Below, piece by piece: positions 29,079 through 47,776 of a stretch of DNA of 64,000 nucleotides (the first letter of the stretch is position 1; every line of letters starts with the position of its first letter). Origin of the DNA: Pyrenophora tritici-repentis (Eukaryota; Ascomycota; Dothideomycetes; Pleosporales; Pleosporaceae); the NCBI RefSeq assembly GCF_003171515.1, contig NC_089398.1, positions 1,674,001 to 1,738,000 of the forward strand, in the 5' to 3' direction. The notes under the pieces were generated by a model. It did no database searches. It was not told the DNA's origin and saw only the letters and a program-made list of their open reading frames with translations. Both the position numbers and the translations under genes were made by a program.

Positions 29079-30942
29079 ACGTGGTTCCCAAGCGAGCGCC
29101 CCACCCAAGCGAGCGCCCCACAAAACACCAGCGCAGCGCACGCGCAACAATAATACACAATGTCACAATAACACTAAGCTTTTAGGCTTTATACTGAAGG
29201 TGACGTACAGCTTGCTATCTCTAATATCTAAAGAGATTAAGTAAAAAGCCTACGACACGCTAAGGCAATCTATAACGTTTCTTAAAGGACGATACAGCGG
29301 CGCTGCGATAGAAAGCGCCCTCAACGCGATTGCGAACTAAATTTAAAACGCCTTACTAAGCTAGAAGAGGAGGCGATTACACAGCGTGTACTTAAAGAGA
29401 GTCTACGTAGAATACCGCCCTCGAAGGCATACGTATAAGATATAGCGGATAGACTGCTAAGAGAGCGTGGTAGGAAGCCTACAGGCAAGAACTAGGTCGA
29501 CAACTTTATTAAGCGTACACTAGAGCTGCGAACGCGATAGAGCTGTCCGTATAATTGCTAATAAGCTGCCTGCGAGGACCTAGCGATTATCTAGCTATAG
29601 TTTAGCCTAGTTTAATCAATAAAGGCGAAGTACAGTATTGTAGATAAGGACACCTAGAATTTTAATAAGTCTAGCTTTATAATAGGAAAGATATTCTCTT
29701 AGCTTATAGTCATAGGTTTAGAGAAACCTAGGAAACAGAAGAAACTATAGCCTAGTAATCGCGAGTAGGTTACTCTAGTACAAGGCGTCGCTGCGACAAG
29801 GCGTATTATCCCACCCTTTCTTATCTTTGCGGGCAAGGTCCTTATTACTACCCAGTTCGCCAGTCTACCTCGCGATTGGATTATTACTGTTTCTCCTAGT
29901 AGCTAGATCAATAACGACGTCGCGCTAGCGTAGCTTAAGCACTTCGACACCTATATAAAGGCGTCCTCTGCTAGGGTATATAGGCTGCTTATTATTAACA
30001 GCTATAAAAGCCACTACTTAATTGAATTCTAGGACTACTATAAGAACAACAAGATTATTACTCTTTGTATGCTACCTTACTCGTCGCACCTCCTACAGCC
30101 TCTTAACGTAGTCCCCTACTCGCTGTTAAAGCGCCACTACAGCGACGGGATCTCGCTCTTAGCACGCAGCCGCATCTACTATATTAACAAAGAAATCTTA
30201 CTACTAGCGTTGAAAGCGGCTTTTAAGAAGATGTTTATAGTAGAGAATATCTGCGCAAGGTTTTGAGGCGCTAGATTAGTCCTATACAACCCTAACGTTG
30301 TGTTATCGAAGCTTAATATATAGCTGCGTACGCTAACGCTACCTACACTAGGCACTATTACCTAGGAAGCACAAACACCGCACAACGCCTGCGAGATAGA
30401 TGCGTAATCTACGCTAATTCAAAATCGTATACAAAACTATCGCGGGTCTCTAGCAAGTTTATTAGATAAGCAGGTTAAGTAGCTAAGTAAAGGCGCTTAG
30501 CAGATAGCTTATAGTATAGTGTTAATATAGGAGCAAATAGGCCGCTTGCGAGGCGCTGTTAACACGCTTATAAAGCGTAAGACCCGTAAAAGGCGGTATA
30601 TACGCGTAGAGGAGACTCTAATAGTTAGTAAGGTATCTAATCTAATTGCTGAAAAGGAGGGTAGTAGTCGTGAGGAGGGCGAGATGCCTGCGAAGAGGGT
30701 GTGCGCAGAGAGGCGCTGCGGCCGTTGCAGCGAGATTAGGCATAACTCCCGCACCTGTAAGGTAGAAATATTAGATGTAGATAATAGCGACGCTTCTAAG
30801 TAATATTATCCTCTTGCGTATAGTATAGTAATTTGTTGTAGCATTATGCTACGTCGCTATGCGTGCGCTGCGCTGGTGTTTCGTGCGGCGCTCGCTTGGG
30901 CGGGGCGCTCGCTTGGGTGAGGCGCTCGCTTGGGAACCACCT
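29079..30942 (+). mobile_element. Pogo/Fot1-like transposon P3, RIP-degraded
   Basis: TIR ACGTGGTTCCCAAGCGAGCG at 29079; the right end reads GCTCGCTTGGGAACCACCT at 30942. TA flanks at 29077-29078 and 30943-30944. The left end has two CAAGCGAGCGCC units and the right end has three, so TIR repeat number varies within one element. Transposase on the plus strand is broken. Confidence 0.88.
29160..30803 (+). pseudogene. RIP-inactivated pogo transposase (P3)
   Basis: Start ATG at 29160 is followed within four codons by TAA. Readable islands are [15 protein letters not shown] near 30069 (third catalytic block, Asp now Asn) and the C-terminal knuckle CGRCSEIRHNSRTC near 30718-30759, which keeps all CCHC ligands. 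Stops are mostly TAG/TAA from CAG, CAA and TGG. Confidence 0.8.
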
Positions 30943-31199
30943 TAAGCCTTATATAGTAGTTTCTTTAATTAGACTAATATCCTTAAATAACGCTTTATCA
31001 ATTAGTAATCTACTATTTTGTATCTTAAAGATTGAGTTACGCCTTAAACTTCTCAAACTGTTATTAGGTTAACGACTTTGTAAGACTATTAGCTAGTATT
31101 AAGCTAGTCTCTAGGTATTCTACCTAGAACGATCCCTTTGCATGCTCCTGCCTAAGCTACATATTCTAAATATCTACGTATTGTAGTTCAAATGTAATA

Positions 31200-31975
31200 T
31201 ACTTATTCTTCTTAATAACTAGCTAAATCGTTTATTAATTATTGCACTAGATCTTCTAAACGTCCCTAAGATTAAGGGTTAGTTCCTTAAAAAAGCGCTT
31301 AAGTGCTATAGCTTCCTTAGCTGTATACTTAAGAGTAAGGAGCTTAGCTTTAGTAGTCGAGGTAGTTACTATGCTCTAGCGCGTTGCTTTCTAGAAGATC
31401 GCGCCGCTAAAGAGCATCGTAATGTAGCTGTGCGATAAGCGACGCGTTTCTAGATTATCCGTAAAAGACGCGTCGCCACAGATAACTAGGTCTAGTCTAT
31501 TATAGTGCCTATACTAGATAGCATCCTATCAAGTCCTGTATAGATATATAATTACTTGTTCTACCGCCTTTATATACTAATTACTTAGATTAGTTAGGAA
31601 ATAGGATAGCATAGAGACAGCAAAGGCTACGTTAGGTCTAAGCATAATAGCTGTGTATAGGACTAATCTAACTTTTTCCTAGTATACCTTAATCTGCTAC
31701 TTAGTTACCTCTCTATTAGACTTAATAAGTTCTTTTAACAGTAGCGGAGTAAAAGGGAATATTCTATTCTCTAAGCTAAACTTCTTAGTAATCTTATTAA
31801 TGTATATGTTATAGACTAGGGTGATCGTCTAAGAGTCTTAGTCCTAAATAACCTTAACCCTAAGGAACTACTTAACTAGTCCTTATGCCTTTATCTCGTA
31901 CTTCGAACTAATCACTTTCTATAATTCTATAGCTTGTTCCTTAAACTCTTTGTAAAATATAAGCAGGATGTTGTA
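31200..31975 (-). pseudogene. Copia reverse transcriptase-RNase H fragment
   Basis: On the minus strand around 31500-31300 the frame reads DASFTDN, then SYITMLFSGAIF, then VTTSTTKAKLL and YTAKEAIALK with intervening stops. This is the Copia RNase H block. It resembles the same region of the element at 15027. The fragment is cut at the P4 insertion (31978) and has no LTRs in sight. Confidence 0.65.
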
Positions 31976-31977
31976 TA

Positions 31978-33821
31978 ACGTGTTTCCCATGCGAGTCGGC
32001 AACCCAAGCGAGTTGGCAGCTCTACCCCACTAACACGCCTTCCTAGCAACAACGCGTAATGTCTCAACAACGCAACGTCTAAATGTCCTACAACGAAGGA
32101 GATATACACCTTACTATCTCTAATATTAATTTAAAGCAAATTTAAAGCTCAAAACGCGCTGCTAAGATCTATAACGTCCCCTAAATAACGATCTAAGACT
32201 GACGCGCTAGACGACGCGCCTAACGCGACTATGAACTAAACTTAAAGCGCCTTATAAAGCTAAAAGAGGAGGTAATTCTATAGAGCGTACTTAGAGCAAG
32301 TCTACGTAGCGTACCGCTAACGAAGGATCTTATACGAGATATAGCTAATAGACTGCTTAGAGAGCAAAGTAGGAAGCCTATTAGCAAGCACTAGGTTAAT
32401 AACTTTATTAAGCGCACACATAAGCTTAAGAAGCGCTAGAGCCGTCCGTATAATCGCTAGCGAGCTACCTACGAAGACCTAGCGCTTATACTACCCTAGT
32501 TCGAGCTTATTTAATTAGTAAAGGCGAAGTACGGTATCCTTAATAAGGATACCTAGAGCTTTAATAAATTAGGCTTCTTAATAGGCAAGATTACGTCTTA
32601 GCTTATAGTTACAGGCTTAGAGAAGCCTAGGAAAGCAAAGAAACTATAGCCTAGCGATCGCGAATATACTACCCTAGTACAAGCTGTCAGCGCGATAGGG
32701 AAGCGTATCCTACCCTTTATTATCTTTGCTAGTAAGGTCCTAATCTCTACCTAGCTTAATCTAGGTATACTACGCGACTAGGTTATTTAAGTTAGTCTAA
32801 ATAGATAGAAAAGCAGCAATCTAGCGCTTAACTAGCTTAAACACTTTAATACGCATACGAAGTCTATAGGAGCGTATAGGCTGCTTATTATTAATAGCTA
32901 TACGAGCTATTGCTCGCTTACTCTCTAGAACTACTATAAGGAGAATAAGATTATCGCTCTCTACATGCTATCTCACTTATCGCACTTACTATAGCCCCTT
33001 AACGTCGCCTACTTCGCGCCGCTAAAGCGCTCTTATAGGGACAGCATCTCGGCCTTAGCGCGCAACCACATCTACTACATTAGTAAGGAAACCTTCCTAC
33101 TAGCCTTTAAAGCTACCTACGAGTAGATATTTACTAAAGAGGACGCTCGCGTAGGGTTTAGAGGCGCTAGATTAGCTCTATTTAACCTAGATGCAGTGTT
33201 ATTAAAGCTTAATATAAGGTTGCGCACGCTAACTCTACCACAGCGCGACGACGTCGCGTAGGAGTCGAAGACGCCGCGCAACGCTAAAGAGCTAGAAGCT
33301 TAGACTACGCTTATTTAATAGAGAATGTAAAGACGCCTAGATTCCTCTGCAAATTCTATTAATAAGCAGGTACGGCAGCTAAGTAAAGGCGCGTAGTAGA
33401 TAGCGCATAATATAGTGTTGCTGCAGGAGGAATAGGCGCGTATACGATGCGCAATCAAAGAGCTTATAAAGCGTAAGAGCTGTAAAAGGCAGTATATATA
33501 GGTAGACGAGACCTTAATAATTAGCGAGGTATTAGACTTAATTACTAAGAGGGAGGGTAGTAGTTGTAAGGACGGCAAAACGCCAGCAAAGAGGGTACGC
33601 GCTAAGAGGCACTACGGCCGTTGCGGCGAGGTTAGGCACAATTCCTACACCTGTAAGGTAGAAATAGAGGATGCAGATAATAGCGAAGAATCTAAGGTAT
33701 AATTTACTATTGCGTACAGCATAACATATTATTGTAGTGTTGCGCGGCGTCGTCGCGCAGGCGTGTCGGTAGGGTAGAGCTGCCGACTCGCTCGGGTTAC
33801 CGACTCGCATGGGAAACACGT
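31978..33821 (+). mobile_element. Pogo/Fot1-like transposon P4, RIP-degraded
   Basis: TIRs start ACGTGTTTCCCATGCGAGTC with two (A/T)GCGAGT(C/T)GGC units per end. TA flanks at 31976-31977 and 33822-33823. 1844 bp. Encodes a transposase related to P3 on the plus strand, now full of stops. Confidence 0.88.
32059..33702 (+). pseudogene. RIP-inactivated pogo transposase (P4)
   Basis: Same plan as P3. Readable parts include the CENP-B-like N-terminus and a C-terminal knuckle near 33600-33660 (YGRCGEVRHNSYTC), in which the first Cys of the CCHC set is replaced by Tyr. Non-functional. Confidence 0.75.
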
Positions 33822-33839
33822 TATAAGGATAATTATAAT

Positions 33840-34033
33840 TGTCGCGGAAATGGACTTGATGTTGGACGTCAGATGATCACATGATTAGATCGGGTCTTTG
33901 AGACTCCAGATCCGTGCCAAGGGACTAGTCCATTAAGTATAAATACCGGACTAGCCGTCTGATCTTTCTGATCCTTAGAGCAATCAATAATCCTACTCTT
34001 AAACAAATCCAATTAGTGTTATCCTAACTATTA
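33840..34033 (+). repeat. LTR, family L4, copy A (194 bp)
   Basis: Begins TGTCGCGGAAATGGACTTGA and ends CCTAACTATTA, with RIP-type changes compared with the copy at 42819. The following bases TAATTATC resemble a mutated primer-binding site (TGGTTATC). A retroelement relic probably continues downstream. No exact target duplication. Confidence 0.75.
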
Positions 34034-34159
34034 TAATTATCTATATCTTAGAGATCTGCGATTAATGCGGGTATACCTCTAGGTGTAGCTCTACCTCCTA
34101 GTTAATTGTCTAGATCCTTACTTCTACCTCGTCTACGCCTAATAGGTATATAGCGATAG
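34034..34159. other. Retroelement leader remnant after LTR copy A
   Basis: Short RIP-mutated stretch between LTR A and the L5 solo LTR; it resembles the sequence downstream of LTR copies B and C in places. Confidence 0.4.
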
Positions 34160-34351
34160 TGTTGGTTGGCTTTGCACTAAGTGCGTAAAGGGAAATAACG
34201 ATAACTAGGAATGCATTCTGTTCGGTGGTTCTAATTGATATCTACGAACATAGGTGCTACGAAGGTATACCTAAGCTCTTGCGCAAGGTGGGCCGAAGTC
34301 GGGCCGAAGTGTCCAGCAGCCGACGTCTCTACCGATACTCACGATCCGACA
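34160..34351 (-). repeat. Solo LTR, family L5 (192 bp)
   Basis: On the minus strand it starts TGTCGGATCGTGAGTATCGG and ends AGCCAACCAACA. Exact direct repeats gatag lie at 34155-34159 and 34352-34356. Contains the imperfect direct repeat gggccgaagtc/gggccgaagtg. Second copy at 41951. Confidence 0.88.
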
Positions 34352-34356
34352 GATAG

Positions 34357-35134
34357 ACTATATTAGGCTCTAGCTAATCTTTCTAAAGTCTCCTACTAGT
34401 CCTTTATATAGGCGCACTTAATTTAACATCTAGATCCCCTATTAGCGCAGTCGCCCTTAAGAAAGATTCTACTAATACGCGTAGTCGTCTACAACGTCTC
34501 GTGCCTTAAGTAACTAATTATTCTGAAGTAGTTATTCCCTCTTAATTATCTACGTTCGTAGACACTAGTTGCGTAGGAGATTTATTAAGTTACGTTAGGC
34601 GCTCTAGCCCTTCGCTACGTAATTGAGTAATAACTAAATTACCTATATCTAGATCTCTAATTCTATTAGGTTAATGTATTCCTTATTAAACACTAGATAG
34701 GAAACGCTAATTAGTGTCTATTCTAGAGCTATATAGCTTAGGTATCTACTTTAAAGTTATAAGTATATCCTAGATTCTAACCTATATTAAATTCTTAAAT
34801 AATTACTAGCTAGTAAATTACGTTGCTTAGTTTTTACTTACCCTTATTCTTAATTATCTAGCTAGCTAGCCTCTAGTTTAGGTCCTTTAGGTAGCTTACC
34901 CCTAAGATTACTCTTAGCAGTTAGATCTATCGTCTAGATTACCTAATCTCTAAGAAATAGGATATTAATATCTACTCTTAGATTATATAATCCTCTAATT
35001 TTAAGTATATCTATAAGTTTAATTACTTATTCCTTTAGTATCTTATCCTTATTCTTCCCTATATAGAAACGAGTCTCGTTAAAGAATATATTGCGAGAAG
35101 TAATTACTTAATTAGTAATAAGAATCTATATCTA
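34357..35134. other. RIP-ruined retroelement interior
   Basis: TA-rich tract with coding echoes on the plus strand but no clean motif. It is interrupted by the hAT insertion at 35135 and may continue at 40977. Confidence 0.4.
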
Positions 35135-35149
35135 CGCTGGCAAATGGGT

Positions 35150-35290
35150 TGGGTATACCCAGTCTTGGGTTGGGGTTGGGTTGGGGTCGCACAGACCATG
35201 GGTTAGGGTTGGGTTGGGGTCGCACAGACCATGGGTTAGGGCTGGGCTGGGGTCGCACAGACCAAGTGGTAGGGTTGGGGTTGGGTTATA
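35150..35290. repeat. Left subterminal repeats of the hAT element
   Basis: Three tandem units of about 45 bp, each containing gggttggggtcgcacagacc after telomere-like gggttagggttgggtt. The mirrored sequence lies near the right end. Position and symmetry suggest transposase-binding subterminal repeats. Confidence 0.8.
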
Positions 35291-35384
35291 TTTTTTGGGT
35301 ACTTTAACGGAACAACACTTAATTAAGATAATGTGTACACGTTGATGATATAGTAGATACATAAAACGAGATATATTAACACAG

Positions 35385-38031
35385 CTAATTATCACGGTAG
35401 CGCTGAGGACGCTGGCGCTTTCGAGGTGGCAATTGACGCTCCTCCTGGACCTCTTCCTCCGACTCTTCTTCTGTAGTCTGGTTCTCCTCATCTATATCGA
35501 AGGTATGCTCTAACGAGGCTGGAAGCTCAAAAAGATCATTAACCTCGTCAATTGGCTCTCCATCCTCCCCTAATTGAGCAACTAGGTAGTCTAGACCCTG
35601 TTCTTCCTCTTGAGATATTGTATCCTTAAGAACCATTATCTGCTGTATTGTCCGGGCAGATAGTCGGTGCCTCCGACTACCAATAACATCCTTAGCAACA
35701 TTGAAAACTCTTTCAACCCCAACCTGAGCAATTGGTATTGCTAGTATATCCTTCGCCACTTGGGATAGTCGTGGGTAGGTAGGCTCGTTCGTCTTCCACC
35801 ACTCTAGAATATCGAAAGAGTCATCTGTCATTACACAGGCAGTACTAAGGTAGGACTCTCCTTCTTGGCGGGTTGGGCCAGTTGTCTTGTCTGATTCTAC
35901 TAGTGAAGAGTTCTGGGAAGAAAAGCTGTTTAACGCTGATGTAGGGGGAGGAGCTGGCTTTCTGAACCACTCATTCCCAAGTGACCTCCTTTTGACTATG
36001 CTAGAGCCTGGGGTTGAACCTCTCCCGTCCGTATTATCATAACGATCAAGGTAAGCAAGAAATTGGCCTCGGTAGAGATGCTTGTACTGTGGCTCCCATG
36101 AATCGTCCTATAAGCGTAATTAGAGCGTGACTGTGATAAATAGCTGTGATAATCATACTTCATATGCTGTAAGCTTCTGCGTTGGATCAAGGATAGTGGC
36201 ACAATTAAACAAGAACCCACGTTCTGCGTCTGTCTTCGAATAGTACTTGCTCAGTTTTAGACGACCCCTGTCAGCTGCAGCTCGTACTACGTCTAGCCAT
36301 TCCCTATCATCTTGATTTTCTTCATCCTCATCTAGGTCCTCTGACATTTTGTCCAAGAAATCAAACAGTCGATTGTACATTAACCAAATATACTGAATCT
36401 GGGGCTTCTCGTTCTGGCTGAGGAAGCTAGTTGCTGTTTTAAACCGTTTAAGCATCTCAGTAACGAGTTCGAGATGATGCCACTCAGTCGAAGATAAGCG
36501 GAGGCGTTTAAGATCCCGGAAATCAATCTCAGCCATTTGATTGTTGTCTAGAGAGCTATCCAGGTGACTACCTGGCCTTAGCAAGATTTCTTGTTTAAGC
36601 CATTCATCAATATATTTTTGGATTTTGAGCGCGCGCTCTAACATGTCGTATGTTGAGTTCCATCGGGTTTTCACGTCGCGGATAACAGATAATCGCCCCT
36701 TTGGCGGTAGATGTTGTTGTACCGCAATAAACCGCTCAAAGCGTTGAGGTGATACGTCAATAGCGATACAAATCGCCCTTATCTAGTCTATTATTAGTAT
36801 GTGATAAATGAATGTGTTAAAAGCGAAATACCTTGCGAAGGGAATTTGGGACTGAAATATGCGTCTCAATGTCCTGTATATGACGTCTCTGTAGGGTATC
36901 CCTTGCTCCTAACTCTGTAGTTGCTGCTAGCCGAAGGTGTTGGATAATATCCTGGACAACGAGGTTGATAATATGGGCAAGGCAAGGGATAGTGTTTTCT
37001 CTGGCACTCCACTGAATGTCGACTTCTTGGAGTTTAGACTGGAGAGTGCGAGCAAGTACGCTATTGTTACTAGCGTTATCACAAGTAATAGCTAGAAGCT
37101 GGGTTTTGGTCTTTGTATCCAGAAGAATATGCAGTACCTCGTCTGCCATAGAAGTACCGGTGTGCCTGCCGCGCATAGGGAGAAAGTCAAGTAGCTTTTC
37201 CTGAAGTTTCCAGTCTTTGTTAATGTAGTAACCCTTTACCGCAAGAAAGCAGAGGTGATTAGCTGCAGACCAGGCATCTAAGGCGATTGAGATCTTTGTT
37301 GATTTTCCAAGATCTCGAAGGATAGACCTTTTTGCTTCCTCATGTTGACTCTTGAATATCGTCTTGAATTTACAACGACTAATTATCACAGTATCTGGTC
37401 GAAGGAACCGAAGAAATCGATGGAAAGATGGTCGTTCAACTGTTCGGAATGACCAGTTGCTGTCGATTACTACCCGTACAAGCTCCTTTTCAAAGGTAGT
37501 AGTAGTGTAAGCTGGTATTGATGAAGTACTGTTTCTTTGTTGACGTTGGGATAGAGTAGAGGCCGATAAGTCTGCCTCATTATGAATAGGAGTAAGGACA
37601 TTTCGACAGCTTTTTGTTTTAAGATGAGTAATAAGGTGCTTTGTCCCAATACCACCTAGATTTGGATGCTGGAGTGCAAGACTACAGTTGTAGCAGAACA
37701 CGTAGGGGTGGCCAGTTCGAAGCTCAGCAGCTTCTCCAAATCGTAACCATACTGTGCCATAGCGAGTAGGAGAGTTCCATCGTGGGTTATCATTTTTAGG
37801 GTTTATACCCCAGCTAGTATTACTCCACGACGCTGTCCATGTCCCTAAGATCTCACTTACACTATAATCTTGCAGAAAACGATTATTTGGATATTTCACT
37901 AATCCAATCGTTCTCCTGTCACCCCCCTTTGTAACCTGTGGAGAATTGATTTTTAAACAGTTGAGGTCCTCCGGAAATTCAATATTAGTAGGATTAGGCA
38001 TAAGCTCAATAGACTGTGCAGCTATGTCCAT
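35385..38031 (-). CDS. hAT transposase (BED finger, RNase H-like core, dimerisation domain)
   Basis: Three exons, 36832-38031, 36159-36782 and 35385-36107, join in phase 0 to 848 aa. Introns are 49 nt (36783-36831) and 51 nt (36108-36158), both with ACTAAT/TCTAAT branch sites and the TTATCACA motif. A BED-like zinc finger lies near residues 105-150 (CYNC...KHLITH). The RNase H-like core shows SIALDAWS (first Asp) and LLAITCDNASNN (second Asp). The C-terminus has the hAT dimerisation block VERVFNVAKDVIGSRRHRLS and an acidic tail. It moves the element by cut and paste in the nucleus. All key blocks are present and no stop or frameshift was found, so it may be active. The start chosen is the ATG at 38031 (MDIAAQSIEL). 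Confidence 0.88.
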
Positions 38032-38380
38032 CGCTTCTAGAAAGTAGTAGAATAAGGCATTAATAGTAGTAGCACACAATAGGAAAAAGTTGAGAAGTTT
38101 AAGTTTGGATGTAGGACTCAAGGCTTCTCACGCTCCTCTCAGCTTTGCTTGCGCTATGACGCCTGTAATTTAACTTGAAACCTTGGCATATTACTAGCGG
38201 AATAACATTTTTAATGCCTCATAGTAAACACATAGATCGTCAGGAGTGCACGGATATTAATCTGCATAAATGACAGATCACAATCTTAAGTTAAGATTAT
38301 ATGGCGCAATAATCCGTGTTAATTAGTTGTGATAACTGCTTACTATCCCTCAATGCTTGAAAGTGTCTTAGCCTAAAACT
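38032..38380. other. Promoter region of the hAT transposase gene
   Basis: About 350 bases between the transposase start and the stop of the acidic-protein gene. Contains one TTATCACA-type motif (gttgtgataa at 38330). No gene. Confidence 0.5.
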
Positions 38381-39583
38381 CTAATTATCAGACTCAGAAG
38401 CGGCATCAGAATCCGGAAACCCCTCAAACTCAGAGTCCTCAGATTCCTCAGACTCCTCAAGCGCTGCCTGCTTCTGTACAGCAGCCCACTGGTCGTCATC
38501 CTCGTACTCGTCTTCAAGTGAATTGAAATGCTCCTCAAGATCAGAGTCATAGTCAACCTCTTCTTCACACTCATCGCTATCGTCACCTTTAACGTACGGC
38601 TTATCAGCCTCCAGCTCAATATCAGCGTCACCAAGTAAGTCGAGAATGCTAGGTGGCTCCCGTTGCCTTATTATATTAGTATCTCTGTGATAAAAGGATG
38701 TGATAAACTTACTGCCAGTCATTATCAGTTACGACTTTCATCTCATCAGGTGTAAGTTCCTCCACGAACTTCTCAAACTCTCTCTTAGCCTCCTTGCTCT
38801 CAAAGTCGTTGTTGTTAAGCTTTGCTAATCCTTCTTGATAGGTCTTTCGAAGAATCTTTTGCAAAACACCACCTGAGCCGTAAATTCTTGCTATTCCTCT
38901 ACCACTAATGTCATGGGTGGGCTTGTCATCTTTGCTAAGCACTTTCGCAATCGTGATCTCGTGTTTTCTCATATCCACCTGCTTAGTGATCGCATCCCAT
39001 TTACGATGCACATGAGTTAGGTTTGTCTCTAGCCATTCAGCTATAGTCTATTAGCAGATGTCTATGATAAACAGCTGTGATAACTTACCAGACTTTTTCT
39101 GGGTAAACCGCTTCTCTGAAAGTATATCCCACTCTTTCTCTAGCAGCTTAGCCTGTCTAGCACTATTTGCTAATTTATACTTAGGCTGTTGCAAAAGCGA
39201 TTTCTTCAGTTGGTACTTCGCGGAGCGGTCGGCTGTTCTAACGCTTTCAAGTACCTTCTCCTCTTTATCGAAAAGAGCTTTGCGTTCACGTTGAGCAATA
39301 GCACGGGCGCTACCACTCAGAGAGCCAGTATAGGGGACGCTCAAATTGATAGGTCGGCCTTTTCGTAAACCCCACTACCTCTTTGATCTAAGATACCGTC
39401 AATCTCGTCAGCTTCACACGCAAATCCCTGCTTATATTAGCATAAGCTGTGATAAATGGCTGTGATTATTACATCGGTAAGCTGCTCCCACTCATCTTGT
39501 TCGAACCCAGGCGGAGGTTCAAGTTTGATGGCTGGAACTAGGCCTTCAGGTACGTCGCCGACTTGCTCTTTCGCGACAGGCAT
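38381..39583 (-). CDS. hAT cargo gene: protein with a strongly acidic C-terminal tail
   Basis: Four exons on the minus strand starting at ATG 39583: 39473-39583, exon 2 ending at 39089, 38713-39040 and 38381-38666. Introns 39041-39088 and 38667-38712 are canonical and each holds two TTATCACA motifs. For intron 1 there are two options. A 42-45-nt intron with a good GCTAAT branch site leaves a one-base frameshift at GGGG (about 39370). A 98-nt intron ending at 39375 keeps the frame intact. The product is about 330-350 aa: an N-terminal linker, a basic Lys/Gln-rich helical region (KALFDKEEKVLESV, AKYQLKKSLL), a middle domain (KWDAITKQVDMRKHEITIAK) and a tail of about 100 residues dominated by Asp/Glu. 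Acidic tails are common in histone chaperones, and the gene is divergent to the H3 variant, but I recognise no family. Confidence 0.6.
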
Positions 39584-40093
39584 GGCGGGGACTGTGATAA
39601 TGCGCTGTTGTAAATGGGGTGTTTTCAATGTAGTAAAGAGAGTTATTAGGTGTTGGGAGTTACTGGGCGTCAGGGGCTGGAGAAATGGGTAGACAGCATT
39701 ATGCTCACCTAGAAATGGTCCGTGCGCTGCTGCCTGCGCTAGCGCGAAAACGCGGAAATTACCCAAAATGACCAACACATCGATGATTCCTTCATTTTTG
39801 GGCTGCACGCATGCGCGAGCTCGGCGTTTATCACAGCAGTTTAACACGTTTGTATGATATGCTCGCTACTGATTTTGCAACAGAAATGGTTGTATGCGAT
39901 CGTGAAACAGCAAATTACGTCATGCAGTCCGTGCGCTGCTGCCTTTACTAGTGCGAAAATCGGGAAATTGCCGTCGCCCAAACTTTCCAGCTACCTAACT
40001 CTTTCAGCCTACTACTTTCTTAATTGTCGACCACATTTATCACAGTAATTAATCACATACGTCGCCTACGTTCATCATCTACTCTACTACGCA
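39584..40093. promoter_or_regulatory. Bidirectional promoter between the two hAT cargo genes
   Basis: 510 bp separate the start codons of the divergent acidic-protein and histone genes. A ~45-bp block is directly repeated at 39718 and 39927, sharing GTCCGTGCGCTGCTGCCT then GCGAAAA and GGAAATT. The first copy contains GCGCGAAAACGCG, whose complement holds TTTTCGCGC, an E2F/MBF-type S-phase site. Single TTATCACAG motifs occur near 39589, 39828 and 40037. Expression control in S phase is inference. Confidence 0.55.
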
Positions 40094-40666
40094 ATGGCAA
40101 GGACAAAACCACGGCCTAAGGTCACCGGTAAAGCCGGCCGGGGTGGTCCTGATGGCAAGACAGTTACTGGCGGCAAGCCGGCTCAGAAGGCCCTTGCTAG
40201 TAAGGCTAGACGTCAAGTAGCAGGAAAGTCTACGCGAAAGGCACCTGTAGCTGTTAAGAAGAAGCGCAAGTTTAAGGCCGGCAGTAGGTTATCACAGTCG
40301 TTTATCACAGCTATTTTCTAATTTAGCTTAGCTGTCGCATTACGGGAAATCAAGAGATACCAGAGAGGTTTTGAACTACTCTTGCGAAAACTCCCCTTTT
40401 CCCGCGTAGTGCGCGAATTTGCACAGGTGCACAAGGCCGATATCCGCTTTCAACGATCTGCAATCGAAGCTCTTCAGGAAGCTACAGAAGCTTTCTTAGT
40501 TGGTTATTTTGAGGGTATAGTCTATCTACCCTATACTATTTTTCATTTAATAACTTTTATAGACTGCAACATCAATGCTATTCACGCAAAGAGGGTTACT
40601 ATTCAAGAGAAGGATTCTCAATTGGCTAGGCGCTACTTTGCGCGCGAGTTACTAGCTTTTCTCTAG
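40094..40666 (+). CDS. Histone H3 variant carried by the hAT element
   Basis: Exons 40094-40283, 40332-40514 and 40563-40666 splice with 48-nt introns (GTAGGT...TTAG and GTATAG...ATAG) in matching phases to 158 aa; canonical H3 is about 135. The tail begins MARTK like H3, then diverges and is ~20 residues longer. The histone fold is clear: [63 protein letters not shown] and QLARR. Loop 1 has normal H3 length with RFQ, so it is H3-like rather than a typical CENP-A. Against H3, positions K4, K14, K36 and K79 are Lys, K9 is Thr, K27 is Gln and K56 is Arg. The C-terminus is extended ([10 protein letters not shown]). Intron 1 carries two TTATCACAG motifs. The frame is intact. Confidence 0.9.
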
Positions 40667-40834
40667 ATTATAAGATATATCTAGATACACGTGCTTAAAT
40701 GCTAGCTGGCGAAGCCTCTGTATATTATAAATGAAACTAGTTAATGCTACACTGTGTTAATCTACTGTGATACTATATAAACTTTTCTTTTATTGAAATC
40801 TATATTATACATCTTGCAATTTTTTTACTATAAC

Positions 40835-40960
40835 CCAACCCTAACCCATGGTCCGTGCGACCCCAACCCAACCCCAACCCAACCCTAAGCTTGGCGCTGA
40901 CAAATGGGTTGGGGTTGGGTTGGGGTCGCAAAATTTCTAACCCAACCCCAACCACACCCC
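40835..40960. repeat. Right subterminal repeats of the hAT element
   Basis: CCCAACCCTAACCCATGGTC followed by CCAACCCCAACCC arrays, the complement of the left subterminal array, with a second short direct-orientation GGGTTGGGG block around 40906-40928. Confidence 0.8.
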
Positions 40961-40976
40961 GACCCATTTGCCAGCG

Positions 40977-41945
40977 TATCTATATCCTATAGAGATTAGA
41001 CGCTTAATAGCTAGCTAAATAGTTCATATAACCCTTTAGATTAACTTTAAATCTATAAAAAATCTCGCCCTACTATATGGTCTTAATCTAAGAGATATAC
41101 GCGGTAGCTATAGGCGTAGATCTAACTCTAATCTAGTTATAGATCCGTAGTGCAGTGTCTAATCTACGTAGGCTCATACTATTTAAAGTACTACCTAAAC
41201 TAGCTCTTAAGGATTTTATTAGGAGATTAGTACTAATAGACTATACTAGGGCTTCTCGCGTATAGGTAAGCTGCTATATCTATAATCTTAGGCTAGAACT
41301 TCTTAGGGAAGTTTACACTAAGGCGTATTTTAATTAACTTTATAATTAGCTCTTAGCCTACTTACTTTACTAAGCTATTTAGCTTATATATATATAGTAG
41401 AGGACTAAGAATTTTAATCTATTTCTCTTTAGTCTATTCCTTGTATCTTAATCGCCCTGTCTAAGGCAAGGTAGTAGTATTATTATCTTAATAGATTTCT
41501 ATAATCTATAAGTTATACTTCTATTTTACCTAAGCTTTAAAGGTTATAATTACCTATATAATCTCTAATAGAGTGTTCCTATAGATATTATAATTGAAGA
41601 TTTTACCTAAAAAATCTTCTTTTATAATTAGAGTAAACTACTTATTTAATCGTCTTTTTAGAAAATCAAACAGATCCTACAAGACTTGATAGAATAGTTA
41701 GGGGGATCGTTTTCTTAGTCTCTAAGAGATCACCTATGTAGCATAAGTAGTAGTATAATACTTACACTCTAGCTATTAGGTGCCTTTAATCCTAACGTTC
41801 TACGTAGCTTAGGCGAGTGCCTAGAAAGCCTTCCAACTTAGGTAGCCTAATCTTTAATACTATAAGAACTTATTATCTGAGTAAAGTTTTAGCTAAGCTA
41901 ATTGTCTTATACTATTTAATCATAGTAGTATAGAAGAATAGCAGA
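40977..41945. other. RIP-ruined tract right of the hAT element
   Basis: TA-rich DNA with stops in all frames, probably the continuation of the tract at 34357-35134. No readable motif. Confidence 0.4.
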
Positions 41946-41950
41946 ATAGC

Positions 41951-42138
41951 TGTCAGATCGTGAGTATCGGTAGAGACATTGGCTGCTGGACACTTCGGCC
42001 CGACTTCGGCCCACCTTGCGCAGAGCTTAGGTATACCTTCGTAGCAGCTATGTTCGTAATCAAGAACCATCACCGAACAGAATGCATTCCTAGTTATCGT
42101 TATTTCCTTTCAGCACTAGTGCTATAGACCTTCCAACA
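41951..42138 (+). repeat. Solo LTR, family L5 (188 bp)
   Basis: Starts TGTCAGATCGTGAGTATCGG and ends CCTTCCAACA. Exact direct repeats atagc lie at 41946-41950 and 42139-42143. Opposite orientation to the L5 copy at 34160. Confidence 0.88.
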
Positions 42139-42143
42139 ATAGC

Positions 42144-42813
42144 TTATATTTAATAAAGACTAGATTATAGTTAACGTAGAGCTTTTTAAGAATAATACTA
42201 TACTCTATATTCTTAGAATAGACAGTCTAATTAAAGCTAGTGTACTAATATCTAACCTTCCTAAGTAAGGCTTTAGAAAAAATGTTAATATAAAATCCTT
42301 TAATAACTATTACGTTCTTAAGTAATAGGTCTTCTAGACTATCTAGTCTATTAAAGAAATCTTTAAACAGTTGATTACCTACCCCCAAGACTAGTAAAGA
42401 TTAAGTACTAGCCTTAACTATTAGGTAGTCTAAGCATTTCTTATAAGTTCCTAAGACTAATAGGTCCTAATTATTAGTAAAATAGAGCGCGCTACCGCTG
42501 TCGGAGATCGTGCTATAAGAAAATAGGTAACTACTATAGTTAAGGTTAAAGATAGTATTACTTAGATCTCCTAAAGTGCGAGGATTAATATTATAAGCTA
42601 CGATAGTGTTTATAGTCTTAGACTTTTTAAATATTTACTAAGTAGAATTAATTTTCTATTTAGCTTATTTTAGCCATGTAAGAAGCGTTAAAAACTTAGA
42701 ACTATAAAGCCTTTAGTTAATTATCCTAGTATCTAAATTAGATAAATAGATCAAAGTAGGTCCTAGATTAGATTTTCTAGTAATTACCTATTAAAGCTTA
42801 TAGTATTTAATAG
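42144..42813. other. RIP-ruined tract
   Basis: TA-rich with no readable gene. The last ~45 bases (ctagtaattacct...ggctct) loosely match the pogo transposase sequence just left of the insertion point at 42819. Confidence 0.4.
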
Positions 42814-42818
42814 GCTCT

Positions 42819-43012
42819 TGTCGCGGAAATGGACTTGATGTTGGACGTCGGATGATCACGTGATCGGATCGGGTCTTTGAGACTCCGGATCCGTGCCAAG
42901 GGACTGATCCATCATGTACAAATACCGGACCAGCCGTCTGATCTTTCTGATCCTTAGAGCAATCAATGATCCCACTCTTGAACGAATCTGATCGGTGTCA
43001 TCCCAACTATCA
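42819..43012 (+). repeat. L4 LTR, copy B (194 bp)
   Basis: Least mutated L4 copy: TGTCGCGGAAATGG...CATCCCAACTATCA. It keeps CpA where copies A and C have TpA. Confidence 0.85.
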
Positions 43013-44093
43013 TAGTACTTCCATACTCCTCTAGTTAATTCTCTAGAGTTTCCTCTACTTAGAATAGATTTACTACTAAACGTAAAGAATACTTTCGTTA
43101 ATCTACCTTTTCTACTAGATACTTTATACTCTTATATAGTTAAGTTAAACACTCTAGCTATATTATTAAGGCTTATAGTTAGCTAACCTATAGCAAACGT
43201 AGCCGTAATTATTTATTATAAATTACGTGCCTAGTTAGGAGCGATCTTTACTGCTAACGTATCTAGAAAGTTAGTAATAGCGAGATTACTTTTAACTTTA
43301 TAAAGTTTAATTACTTAAGCTTTTATATAGAGAGCCTGCTGATTATTAAACTATTTATCTATATTAGATCAACTAGTTTTAGCCTTCTTTAAGTAAGCCC
43401 TATATTAGATGCGTAGGAGGTTCTTAGTGTTTAAATCTAATAGCGAGAGACGCTTCTTAAGCTCCCTAACTACAGCCTATAGAGTAGATGTTCCGCGTAG
43501 GAGCTGTATAGTAATTAGCAAGAGTAAGTTCTAGGAAACTGTACAATTAATCTACTTATTAATATTTGCGATCTTTAAAGCCTTCCTAACCTACTAGTTA
43601 TATAGAACTTTATAGACGTAAATATTCTCCTCGTAATTTTAAATAGCGATCTAGTAGGCTGCCTTCTTATAATTATACTCCTTAAGAGAAACATAATATT
43701 TAGGCGTTAGCTCTAAGGTAGGCGTAGTAAGCTTAACTAGCTTAGATAGAATAGCTAGATAGACTAGCTCGAGGGATTTAATCGCTGGTATAAGAGTGAT
43801 AACATTTAGGTTAATATATTCCTAGACTCCGCGATCGCGCAAGTGTTTCTTAAGTAGTAGGAACTATCAATGCTAGTCCTTATAGGTATATAGGATAATA
43901 TTAGGTGCTAGGATTTTAGGGTAGTAATCTATAATAGTCCTCTTTATCTTAGAACTAATTAATAGACTTAACGAGAACAGAAGTAATAAATAGAGAGAGA
44001 TAGATAGAGTAATAATCTAATCGTGTAACTAACGTGAAAAAGGTGCGTAGGGAGAATTAATACTGCGATCTTAAAACGCCGGGCTTATAACCA
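43013..44093 (-). pseudogene. Gag-like relic inside the inverted-LTR composite
   Basis: On the minus strand from about 44000 to 43050 a Lys/Leu-rich helical reading frame with many TAG/TAA stops can be followed (segments such as YKKAAYQIAIQNYKEN). Its position just after an LTR and a primer-binding-site-like sequence suggests gag. No pol motif is present. Confidence 0.45.
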
Positions 44094-44287
44094 TAATAGT
44101 TAGGATAACACTAATTAGATTTGTTTAAGAGTAGGATTATTAATTGCTCTAAGGATTAGAAAGATTAGACGGCTAGTCCGGTATTTATACATAATAGACT
44201 AGTCCCTTGGCATGGATCCGGAGTCTCAAAGACACGATCCGATCATGTGATCATCTGACGTCCAACATCAAGTCCATTTCCGCGACA
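44094..44287 (-). repeat. L4 LTR, copy C (194 bp, inverted)
   Basis: Reverse complement of copies A and B, with moderate C-to-T change. Confidence 0.85.
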
Positions 44288-44678
44288 GCTCTTATGCTAG
44301 CGCACGCGCTTACGTATAAGGCTTAACTAAGCCTTAAGCTCACGCGCGTTGCTCAGCGTTTAAGCTACCTAGGGAGCCTCTAGCAGAGCTGCTGCTAGAG
44401 GAGGAGTAGGTGTACGCAGCTATATATCTAGCTTTAGTAAAATAGCCTCTAGTTATAGAGGAATAAAGCCTACGATGCGGGAGGCTAAGTAGATGTTAGC
44501 TAGTGTAAATGCTGTATTAAACGCTATCTTAAATGCTAGTAGAAACTCTAGCTTAGTGATATAGTTTATGTAGTTACGTATAAGGCTCTCTACCTTATAG
44601 CTGTACACGCGCTTTAATAGCGAGAAGCAGCTAACATTGTGTACCTAGAGTAGGTAAGATAAGTAAGGAGGTATATAG
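44288..44678 (-). pseudogene. Fragment of a pogo transposase gene (P5)
   Basis: Matches the minus-strand transposase of P2 over the region 26253-26640 with heavy RIP (for example gctagcgcacgcgctta against gctggcgcacgcgctca). It is interrupted on the left by the inverted-LTR composite and on the right by the Gypsy LTR at 44679, where the matching sequence stops abruptly. Confidence 0.8.
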
Positions 44679-44849
44679 TGTCATGGATCAAACCCGCGAC
44701 CTCTAGTAAGCGAGGTGGCCCGTGCGCCTTAAGCGAAGGCCACAGCCGAACACCAAAGTTCGACCCGCGCAGGTCTTCGAACCTGCACGCAATATCTCAC
44801 TTAGTACTTAATACAGATACGGTCATCTCAACTATTGACGTCCCTCACA
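44679..44849 (+). repeat. 5' LTR of the Gypsy element
   Basis: TGTCATGGATCAAACC...GTCCCTCACA, 171 bp. Contains the perfect hairpin GCAGGTCTTCGAACCTGC. Confidence 0.92.
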
Positions 44850-45394
44850 CTATATTGCGTCTACCATACGGTACCTAGGACACGCGCGGAAAGTGACCGC
44901 ACCGAAGAACTCAGCGCGCAATCAGTATTGCTCGTGACAGCAACCCCGCAACCCCGCGGCTGAGACGGCGACAACTCGTCCCCATCTTCGGTCACAGACC
45001 CGCATCAGGATAGCTCGCGCGCCGCCAACTGGGACTTTGAGGCTCTGTTATACGACTGCGGAGTGGAACTCAATTGTCATTGGCCCTCGTACGCGCGCGA
45101 TACAAGCTATTGTGCTGACAGCGGAAGGCGTGTTGTGCTGGAAGCCCATCATCGAAGGACGTTGCCAGTACCGCGTCGCGATTGAGAGTATCGCGATTGC
45201 ACTGGAACGATTGCGACGGTATCGCATCACCTTGGTGACTGGTAGACGGTTTGGCTCACCGCTTTACTTCGAGCAAGGAGTCAGGAGTGTGACAGCAAAT
45301 AATCAGCTGTGCTCCCCGCCCACATTTGACGCACTCTCTCACAATCATAACCACTCTCTTTCTCCACCTACATTAACCACACCCAACACCTTAA
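44850..45394. other. Gypsy 5' leader
   Basis: 545 bases of untranslated leader. A 121-codon open frame (45037-45402) overlaps the gag start but has no recognisable domain and is not called as a gene. Confidence 0.5.
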
Positions 45395-47776
45395 ATGTTT
45401 AGAACTATCAACGCCATTAGCGACAACGTCTCTACCGGCGGCCGCCACCCCCGCCGATCTAGCGACATGCAGCCTCCTCCACAGCCCAGCGTGACTGACT
45501 TCCCTATTGGCCGCAAGAAGCGCAAAGACAAAGCGCCCGCGACCCCCCGCAGCCAAGACTCCAGCCGCGAGCGACCTAAGGATACTGCATCCGACACCCA
45601 ACAAACTATTAGCCAAGGCCCCGCTCCTAAGCATGAGCCTGTTCGTCGATCCGAACCAGGCCGTCGAAGCACCTTCGGCTACCCCGCACTTCCAGTTACA
45701 GAAGGAGACAGCCAAGAGCCCACAATGGTACCACACGACCCTGCCGACATCTACGATGTTATAGTTGGCAGTTGTCGACTCCAATCCCTCAGAAACAAGA
45801 ACGTCTTGTCTGCCAAGATTACTCACTCTGAGTTCACGTTCATCACTATTGTACAAAACGAGACTGAGGATGAATTTGAGCTGTACCTAGGCCGAGAATC
45901 TCCCCTGGAAGAATTCCAAGTCCCCGTCTGCACTGACGACGACTTATTGGAGCTAGCCACTTCAAACACCGCGTTCCTGCGCTCTCTAGCTATTGAGCTC
46001 ATGAAGTTCGCCGCTGCTTGCGCTCCTATCCTGGACGCGAACATCGATGCAATAACCAAGGAAGCTCACGAAGCCGCTGTTAACCGCTTACGCCTTCGCA
46101 TCACTAAGGCTGAAGCTAAGCTTAGCTGGTACGAGAAGGAAGTCTCAAAGCTGACTGAGACTATTGAGACTACTAATGCTGAGTTGGAACACACCAACCG
46201 AGAGCGTAATGAGCTTAAGCTAGAGGTCGAGCGCTTTTATCGTCCTTCATCCTCCAAGACCGCCGGTTGCACTAACCCTACTCACCAAGACTGGTATGAG
46301 GACTGGAAACACGAAGAAGCGCAGTCCATTAAGTTCCACGGCCTGTACGAGGAGTTCTTCAGGAAGCACCAGGAAGAGCGCGCCCGCGCAGACCGCTATC
46401 ACCAGCAGCGCGCAGAACGCGACGCCGACTACGAAGATGTGGTCGCCCAGAACTGCGCACTTGAAGAACAACTTGTCCAAGCTACTGAGAATACCCGCAA
46501 GCTAGAGACCTCTCTAACTCAGCAACAGCGTGAGTACAATGACGTTGTTGCGCGCCTTCAGCGATATGATCATAACTTCCGCCCGTACACCTTGCAGCGT
46601 CGCGAGGACCGCGGTCGTAACAGTCATCTATCTACTCAGCGCAACCGACGACACGAGTCACCTGAGCGCCGTACAGATCGCCGCACTGCATCACCTAACC
46701 CGTATCCTAGCCGACAAGCCACTCCTGTTGTTACTCGGCCTGCGCCTCGCCCTCGCGGCGACTCTCACTCAAGATCGCGCTCCCGCTCCCGCCGAGATCG
46801 CGCGAATCCGTTGAACCAAGATCCTCACCGATATATCCCTCCTCCATACAACGGCCAGCAATCAGTACAACAGGCAGCGTCCACAGTTGGAGGTCTAAGC
46901 CTTTCCTTTAAGCTCCCCGACATTGAAGTCTGGAAAGGCAACGATGATACCAAGAACTACGACAAGTGGCGTCGGTCAGCCATCCAGAAGTGCGAATCTC
47001 TGCCTGAAGACAAGCAATTGGCCTACTTGGAGATGAAGGTGGACGGCGCAGCATGGCAATATATTGACGATCTCAAGTTCGAACACTACTTGGACCTTCT
47101 TGAAGGACTGGACCCATACTACGCGCGCTCTACCTACGAGAAGGTCTCAGAAGCACAGTCGCAACTCGCTGATGGCTCTCTCAAGATGGGATCGTCTGAA
47201 TCCTTTGCAGATTGGCGTGGGCGCTTTATGAGCGTGTGTCGCCTAGTGAAGCTTCCAGACAGCGCCATGATTGGCCACGCTCGCGCTTTCCTGCGACCTG
47301 GCCTCGCCGCCGCCGCCTCACACGCCTTTGACGATGAGCAAGAGAATGCTCTTGTCAAGTTCCTTGACGCCGCCCGCAAGTCTGATCTAACACAGAAACA
47401 GATTAATCAAGGCAAGACCGCTGCTGACAAACCTCGCACCAAGCCGCGCACGCGCTCCCCAAATGATCGTAATCCTGCACGAAAGGCTCGCTCTGGCCGA
47501 GGACAACATCGCGAAGCTACTACGACGCGCACAGAGTGGCAGAAGGACGCAATGGCTAAGGCTAAGGTCTGCTTCCGTTGTGGCGAGACTGGTCACCAGG
47601 CGCGCGATAAGAAGGGTTGCGCAATCTTAGACTGGGACCAAATCAAGCCTAAGCTTAGTAGTATGCATCTCTATGCTATGGGAGCGGACTTCGACGCCGA
47701 AGACGACGACTCTAATGCTTCCACTGAAGAGGAGCCTGAGTTGGACGACATGGGCGAGCCAGTTTCGGAAAACTAG
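45395..47776 (+). CDS. gag: Gypsy Gag polyprotein
   Basis: Intact 793-codon frame. Order: a basic, disordered N-terminus; coiled-coil segments (about 230-290 and 315-395); an Arg/Ser-rich stretch HSRSRSRSRRDR near 455; a retrotransposon gag domain (about 500-670, containing WQYIDDLKFEHYLDLLEG); and a zinc knuckle CFRCGETGHQARDKKGC near 726-742. The last spacing is x7 instead of the usual x4. Gag would assemble the cytoplasmic particle and bind RNA. The stop TAG at 47774 overlaps the start of the pol frame, which is in the -1 frame. Confidence 0.9.
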   Translation: MFRTINAISDNVSTGGRHPRRSSDMQPPPQPSVTDFPIGRKKRKDKAPATPRSQDSSRERPKDTASDTQQTISQGPAPKHEPVRRSEPGRRSTFGYPALPVTEGDSQEPTMVPHDPADIYDVIVGSCRLQSLRNKNVLSAKITHSEFTFITIVQNETEDEFELYLGRESPLEEFQVPVCTDDDLLELATSNTAFLRSLAIELMKFAAACAPILDANIDAITKEAHEAAVNRLRLRITKAEAKLSWYEKEVSKLTETIETTNAELEHTNRERNELKLEVERFYRPSSSKTAGCTNPTHQDWYEDWKHEEAQSIKFHGLYEEFFRKHQEERARADRYHQQRAERDADYEDVVAQNCALEEQLVQATENTRKLETSLTQQQREYNDVVARLQRYDHNFRPYTLQRREDRGRNSHLSTQRNRRHESPERRTDRRTASPNPYPSRQATPVVTRPAPRPRGDSHSRSRSRSRRDRANPLNQDPHRYIPPPYNGQQSVQQAASTVGGLSLSFKLPDIEVWKGNDDTKNYDKWRRSAIQKCESLPEDKQLAYLEMKVDGAAWQYIDDLKFEHYLDLLEGLDPYYARSTYEKVSEAQSQLADGSLKMGSSESFADWRGRFMSVCRLVKLPDSAMIGHARAFLRPGLAAAASHAFDDEQENALVKFLDAARKSDLTQKQINQGKTAADKPRTKPRTRSPNDRNPARKARSGRGQHREATTTRTEWQKDAMAKAKVCFRCGETGHQARDKKGCAILDWDQIKPKLSSMHLYAMGADFDAEDDDSNASTEEEPELDDMGEPVSEN

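What the first reader, a model, noticed from the sequence alone, without database searches (positions are those of the whole stretch)
35135..40976. hAT transposon carrying an intact histone H3 variant and a second cargo gene
Seen: TIRs CGCTGGCAAATGGGT at both ends with a 6-bp direct repeat tatcta, subterminal repeats, an intact transposase, and between them a spliced H3 gene plus a four-exon gene. Both cargo genes lie inside the TIRs, so they move with the element. Known: cut-and-paste hAT elements normally encode only a transposase. I recall, without being able to check, a report of histone H3 transduplication by transposons in a wheat tan-spot fungus; the paired cargo and shared introns may go beyond that. 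Inference: the element spreads its own chromatin proteins.
Basis: partly seen in the sequence, partly recalled or inferred. Interest (0 to 1): 0.95.

Follow-up and report, generated by a model that had tools for sequence, protein, structure and literature searches.

The report
Jumping gene carrying a histone H3
This is a real, recently mobile fungal jumping gene (hAT type) that carries its own unusual histone H3 and a second gene; it was already published from the wheat tan-spot fungus in 2013, but protein matches suggest the histone and its partner gene have travelled together for longer than a recent accidental capture would allow.

Summary
It encodes a transposase, a central protein and a 158-aa H3-like protein (H3L). 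In this copy the central gene is frameshifted; intact copies exist. The genome holds 33 two-ended copies (31 sites; 11 long, 22 short). All 33 carry H3L sequence, intact in 30; 23 have perfect 8-bp duplications. Manning et al. 2013 described this element. I add: (1) Pyrenophora teres has relatives of H3L and of the central protein under consecutive locus tags, about two-thirds identical, so the pair is probably older than one recent capture. (2) H3L groups with other Pleosporales and metagenome H3-like proteins, apart from canonical and centromeric H3 (100/98, 20 chosen rows); five of seven lineages lack lysine at position 9. (3) Five, perhaps six, of seven introns, in all three genes, are related and carry a paired TTATCACAG motif almost confined to this family. 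That the cargo serves the element through chromatin is inference, untested.

The parts
35125..35132 (.). left copy of the 8-bp target duplication TCTATATC
35133..35149 (+). left terminal inverted repeat TACGCTGGCAAATGGGT
35165..35290 (+). subterminal 33-bp repeats (TTGGG/TTAGGG-like)
   Evidence: D1, D3, I1
35376..35397 (+). left subterminal paired motif, degenerate, inverted relative to the right one
35385..38031 (-). hAT transposase gene, three exons, 848 aa
   Evidence: (PF05699)
36108..36158 (-). transposase intron T2, paired TTATCACAG motif
36783..36831 (-). transposase intron T1, degenerate paired motif
35770..39043 (.). stretch missing between the two matched pieces of the short form (end points of the alignment of L011 to the window; the pieces meet in a few shared bases)
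38381..39583 (-). central gene, four exons, 354 aa in intact copies; frameshifted in exon 2 of this copy
38667..38712 (-). central gene intron C3, paired motif
39041..39088 (-). central gene intron C2, paired motif
39428..39472 (-). central gene intron C1, paired motif
39584..40093 (.). divergent upstream region of the central gene and H3L, with a 46-bp direct repeat (83%) and single TTATCACAG motifs
   Evidence: (D6)
40094..40666 (+). H3L gene, three exons, 158 aa
   Evidence: (PF00125)
40284..40331 (+). H3L intron H1, paired motif
40515..40562 (+). H3L intron H2, no motif, unlike the others
40752..40773 (-). right subterminal paired motif, degenerate, inverted relative to the left one
40832..40930 (-). 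right subterminal repeats
   Evidence: I1-I3, I7
40962..40978 (-). right terminal inverted repeat
40979..40986 (.). right copy of the 8-bp target duplication TCTATATC

Best explanation
Shown: this is the H3L-carrying hAT transposon of Pyrenophora tritici-repentis, recently mobile, with H3L and the central gene inside its ends. Inferred from protein matches: the two cargo genes are long-standing genes of this element's lineage rather than a recent capture of the resident H3. Inferred and untested: they are accessory chromatin genes serving the element. H3L would enter nucleosomes and, lacking the ARKS context of lysine 9, would resist H3K9-methylation silencing; the acidic-tailed central protein would handle H3L or bind the element; the paired TTATCACAG motifs would be sites of a protein that coordinates the three genes and the ends. 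The confidence given is for the history (long-standing pair); the full mechanism is in the novel case.
For: Two-ended copies with H3L in 33 of 33, intact in 30 of 33, perfect 8-bp duplications in 23 of 33. Tree split 100/98 of eight H3L-like rows from canonical H3 and CenH3. H3L matches the resident canonical H3 at only 66% over residues 41-149 and its introns lie elsewhere than that gene's. 43 invariant columns remain across H3L-like and canonical H3. Related introns and motif tie the three genes together.
Against: P. teres DNA was not seen: that the pair lies in a transposon there is not shown, and none of the 49 transposase hits is named P. teres. H3L is 61% identical to a canonical H3 in the same alignment, not far below its 66-67% to P. 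teres. The tree has 98 columns, chosen rows, 11 open forks and three long rows, among them Alternaria and a metagenome one of the H3L group. Ptr H3L and the P. teres proteins have a lysine one place away from position 9, and two metagenome relatives keep K9. No selection test was possible. Central protein: no Pfam family above cut-off, poor model.
Confidence: 0.6

Rival explanations
1. Transduplication without function, the published view: a hAT recently took up an H3 gene or transcript and an unrelated gene, and both are amplified as passengers.
For: The authors of PMC3538342 and PMC6710886 read it so; near-identical copies mean recent spread; H3L has drifted far from canonical H3; the window copy itself has a broken central gene.
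Against: The pair of relatives under consecutive tags in P. teres, the H3L clade, and open frames with 43 invariant H3 columns are not expected of a recent passenger.
Confidence: 0.3
2. The shared introns come from one intron that was copied into the three genes inside the element (an introner-like process), and the paired motif is just the inherited intron sequence, with no binding function.
Against: The motif also lies outside introns: in upstream regions, inverted near both ends, and twice in transposase exons, which fits a binding site better. It has not spread through host genes: 292 of 305 places are in the 33 copies.
Confidence: 0.4
3. The motif is a site for a host factor, such as a GATA factor (the reverse strand reads CTGTGATAA), that the element uses for its own expression.
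For: The motif contains GATAA (recalled as GATA-factor core); it is present upstream of all three genes and in introns; two loci with pogo/DDE-like transposase frames carry it too.
Against: The pair with this spacing is almost absent from the rest of the genome (at most about 13 of 305 places).
Confidence: 0.25
4. H3L acts on the host: more or altered nucleosomes change expression genome-wide, and the copies are kept for that.
For: Raised as a question by PMC3538342; 30 intact copies here.
Against: No data; the same paper calls an effect on cellular expression possible though unlikely.
Confidence: 0.08

Closest known systems
H3L hAT element of P. tritici-repentis (Manning et al. 2013, G3, PMC3538342; passages and section 20 part 1)
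   Same: Same species by protein matches, same three genes, same long (about 5.6 kb there) and short (about 2.3 kb there) forms, short form joined at a shared gactat; H3L far from both H3 and CenH3.
   Different: Another assembly: 11 long and 22 short two-ended copies here (10 and 16 there). Not found in the passages I saw: the 8-bp duplication, the related introns and motif, P. teres relatives of the pair, the K9 comparison (the terms target site and lysine do not occur in its main text).
hAT with histone H3 in Pseudocercospora, Cercospora and Sphaerulina (Dhillon et al. 2019, Mob DNA, PMC6710886; parts 1-5 of 7)
   Same: hAT transposon with H3-like sequence, amplified, 8-bp duplication.
   Different: There intronless H3 sequence, copies inactivated by RIP, no similarity of the hAT to the Ptr element, about 9.5 kb; here spliced genes, mostly not RIP-mutated, plus a central gene.
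Introners / introner-like elements (PMC9860276, PMC4457414; search listing only)
   Same: Related introns in several different genes.
   Different: Here confined to one transposon family, not spread over host genes.

Membership tests
hAT superfamily | 8-bp target site duplication | tested here: met
   perfect in 23 of 33 two-ended copies, 22 distinct
hAT superfamily | short terminal inverted repeats | tested here: met
   17-bp TIR, 31 + 31 exact places in the genome
hAT superfamily | transposase with hAT dimerisation domain | tested here: met
   PF05699 72.5 bits, cut-off 21.4
hAT superfamily | transposition shown by experiment | not testable with these tools
   PMC3538342 reports no evidence yet that the full-length element is mobile
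Published Ptr H3L element | transposase, central ORF and H3L between TIRs, long and short forms, short form joined at gactat | tested here: met
Recent transduplication of the resident H3 gene | close match to the host gene, same introns or none | tested here: not met
   66% over residues 41-149; introns at other places
Histone H3 | histone fold domain of H3 type | tested here: met
   PF00125 110.3 bits, cut-off 26.4; PDB H3 chains E 4e-40 for P0016
Histone H3 | ARKS motif with lysine 9 | tested here: not met
   absent in Ptr H3L; K one place away
CenH3 (CENP-A) | groups with CenH3 | tested here: inconclusive
   the resident CenH3 falls on the canonical side of a 100/98 split, but it is a long row
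Introner-like elements | near-identical introns across many host genes | tested here: not met
   292 of 305 motif places lie in the 33 copies; only the paired motif was searched, not whole introns
Histone chaperone (central protein) | recognisable chaperone domain or fold | tested here: inconclusive
   no Pfam above cut-off; model pLDDT 56.2, not searched by fold

The most novel reading that the evidence does not exclude
A DNA transposon lineage has kept its own histone H3 variant and a partner protein across Pyrenophora as a chromatin module: the variant, unable to carry normal H3K9 methylation, loosens or marks the element's chromatin, the acidic partner handles it, and all three genes and both ends answer to one element-specific paired site.
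Probability: 0.2. Interest if true: 0.88.

Novelty: already known. Interest (0 to 1): 0.42.

Why it matters
The element is in print, so its existence is no discovery. If the histone and its partner are long-kept genes of the transposon, it would be a rare case of a cut-and-paste transposon that brings its own chromatin, and the question left open in 2013 (is there selection for the captured histone, and why?) becomes directly testable at named loci in two species.

Tried and rejected
Six-bp duplication: rejected; the ends of the copies show an 8-bp duplication outside a 17-bp TIR. Nested insertion or assembly artefact: rejected by two-ended copies at 31 different sites. The motif as a general host intron signal: not supported by genome counts (a variant pattern with a purine in the spacer gave 0 places). 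Outside places that I looked at: a transposase fragment of this family (L034, two hits), a relic of the central gene (L035, one), and two loci with pogo/DDE-like transposase frames (L038 one, L039 two; that label is recalled from the look of the frames). Identity of the central protein: no Pfam above cut-off, one weak PDB hit at E 0.6, poor model (pLDDT 56.2), so no fold search was run; a chaperone role rests only on the acidic tail. H3L model also poor (pLDDT 55.6). Better preservation of H3L than of the transposase (9 against 5 of 11 long copies): the genes differ in length and I do not count it as evidence. First thought that L024/L026 were a pair with exchanged flanks: wrong; they and L019/L025 are the same two sites on C7 and C18, flanks 100% identical over 302 bases. 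Literature. Only PMC3538342 and PMC6710886 were found to treat this subject; one search had 62 papers, of which 15 were listed. The 2022 pangenome paper has no occurrence of histone (PMC9594970, find only); PMC12543289 and PMC4994206 do not treat it in the passages found. No P. teres H3L transposon turned up.
Full report
What is there. The window lies in an unnamed 40.9-Mb genome of 41 contigs. Database proteins of Pyrenophora tritici-repentis match the element's proteins at 98-99% (best full-length or near-full-length hits), so I take the species to be that one. The element runs from 35133 to 40978. The ends of the copies show that the terminal repeat is TACGCTGGCAAATGGGT and the target duplication 8 bp, here TCTATATC on both sides.

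Genes. On the minus strand lie a three-exon transposase of 848 aa with the hAT dimerisation domain and a four-exon central gene; on the plus strand, divergent from the central gene, lies H3L, 158 aa in three exons. In the window copy transposase and H3L are open, while the central gene has a frameshift in exon 2 and stops at 65 aa. Of the 11 long copies the transposase is open in 5, the central gene to its end in 8 and H3L in 9 (L004 has no stop in the central frame but ends out of frame, so I count it as broken). Sequencing error in single-base runs cannot be excluded for some of these.

Copies. 33 copies have two ends: 11 long (5840-5882 bp) and 22 short (19 of 2574-2606 bp and three of 4141, 4804 and 8630 bp with inserts). 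Two sites occur twice, on C7 and on the 35-kb contig C18, with identical flanks (L019/L025 and L024/L026), so there are 31 distinct sites. A further place is a transposase fragment in which I found no TIR (L034). Perfect 8-bp duplications flank 23 of 33 copies (8 of 11 long, 15 of 22 short), 22 of them distinct. Of the other ten, L010/L012 and L028/L030 have exchanged flanks, which fits recombination between copies; L002, L006, L007, L029 and the twice-present site L024/L026 do not match. H3L is intact with its splice sites in 30 of 33: 19 identical to the window, 8 with one silent change, 3 with one amino-acid change; it is broken in L007 (a one-base length change), L030 (an insertion) and L033 (old, mutated). 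In the short form the stretch between about 35770 and 39043 is missing, which joins the start of the central gene to the end of the transposase, as published.

Recent insertion into RIP-like DNA. In 9 of the 10 kilobases at 30001-35000 and 41001-46000 the composition is RIP-like (TpA/ApT 1.49-2.1; CpA+TpG over ApC+GpT 0.31-0.72); the tenth, 45001-46000, is not (0.91, 1.1). The element is not (1.09, 1.09). One old copy, L033, is heavily RIP-mutated: 80 of 102 C-to-T changes lie before A and 103 of 129 G-to-A changes after T, against L003. So RIP has acted on this family, although Manning et al. call RIP inefficient in this species (passages).

What is known. Manning et al. 2013 (PMC3538342; [quoted passage not shown] Dhillon et al. 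2019 (PMC6710886; parts 1-5 of 7) describe another hAT with H3 in Mycosphaerellaceae and treat the Ptr case as a recent, independent capture of a transcript. The finding as given is therefore already known.

What is added: age. The search with the central protein returned 14 proteins: 11 of Ptr, two of P. teres f. teres (P0004, P0007) and one of Exserohilum turcica (P0014, 40%). The H3L search scored 7992 candidates and 7917 passed, of which 120 were listed; among these are two H3L-like ones of P. teres (P0068, P0108). P0108 is CFE70_001393 and P0004 is CFE70_001394, both listed with contig length 5608903. Identity to the Ptr proteins is 66% (P0108) and 67% (P0068) for H3L and 66% (P0004) for the central protein in the alignments; the BLAST local values are 58% over the whole query, 69% over 87% and 63% over 98%. 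In the same alignment H3L is 61% identical to a canonical H3, so identity alone separates them little; the shared features and the tree carry the claim. The pair thus probably existed before the two species parted, or passed between them. I could not read P. teres DNA: that the pair lies in a transposon there is not shown. Of the 49 transposase hits none is named P. teres; the nearest outside Ptr are a Boeremia exigua protein (60% over 61%) and unnamed metagenome ones (57% over 71% and lower). In this genome no place outside the family exceeds 31% identity among 104 scored of 488 candidates (first 400 residues).

What is added: the histone. A tree of 20 H3 cores that I chose, 98 columns, splits eight H3L-like rows (Ptr, two P. 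teres, Paraphoma, Alternaria, Massariosphaeria, two metagenome) from 12 canonical-side rows including the resident CenH3 with 100/98 support; 11 of 17 inner branches are open and three rows are long. The H3L-like rows share N where canonical rows have C or A before AIHA, and YY or YF near the C-terminus. Counting P. teres once, K14 and K18 are kept in 7 of 7 lineages and K23 in 6 of 7, while the lysine five places before K14 (K9) is missing in 5 of 7 (Ptr, P. teres, Paraphoma, Alternaria, Massariosphaeria) and kept in P0081 and P0083. Against this reading: Ptr and P. teres have a lysine one place further out, and Paraphoma is a partial sequence. That the change weakens H3K9 methylation is inference from enzyme preferences, recalled.

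How it most likely works. Shown: hAT ends and recent spread with the cargo. Inferred: the cargo genes belong to the element's lineage (0.6). Inferred and untested: they act on chromatin for the element (0.2 for the full module).

Noticed in passing
L005:206-339 and L007:7524-7657: 134-bp miniature elements with TIR TACGCTGGTAAATGGGT and 8-bp duplications beside long copies; the variant TIR occurs 13 times in the genome, 10 of them as five pairs 117 bp apart.
   Followed up: partly
35165-35290 and 40832-40930: Subterminal repeats resemble telomeric TTAGGG/TTGGG repeats; meaning unknown.
   Followed up: no
39742-39750: CGCGAAAA/TTTCGCGC in the divergent upstream region, like yeast SCB and E2F cell-cycle sites (motifs recalled); CRCGAAAA occurs twice in the 64-kb window. 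May be chance.
   Followed up: no
L010/L012 and L028/L030: Pairs of short copies with exchanged target duplications, as if recombination between copies had inverted the DNA between them.
   Followed up: partly
G000:C18 (35 kb) and C7:1128320-1134867: Two short copies and their flanks occur on both contigs, so C18 duplicates part of C7 in reverse order; assembly duplicate or real.
   Followed up: partly
L035 (G000:C7:2008491-2008779): Old relic of the central gene, 71% identical, that still shows intron C2 with a degenerate paired motif.
   Followed up: partly
L038 and L039: Loci with DDE/pogo-like transposase frames carry the paired TTATCACAG motif 27 bp behind a long frame; L039 also between two frames.
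   Followed up: partly
40895-40976: The right end is itself an inverted repeat of about 82 bp with a second, inner TIR-like sequence (CGCTGACAAATGGGT), kept in the other copies.
   Followed up: no
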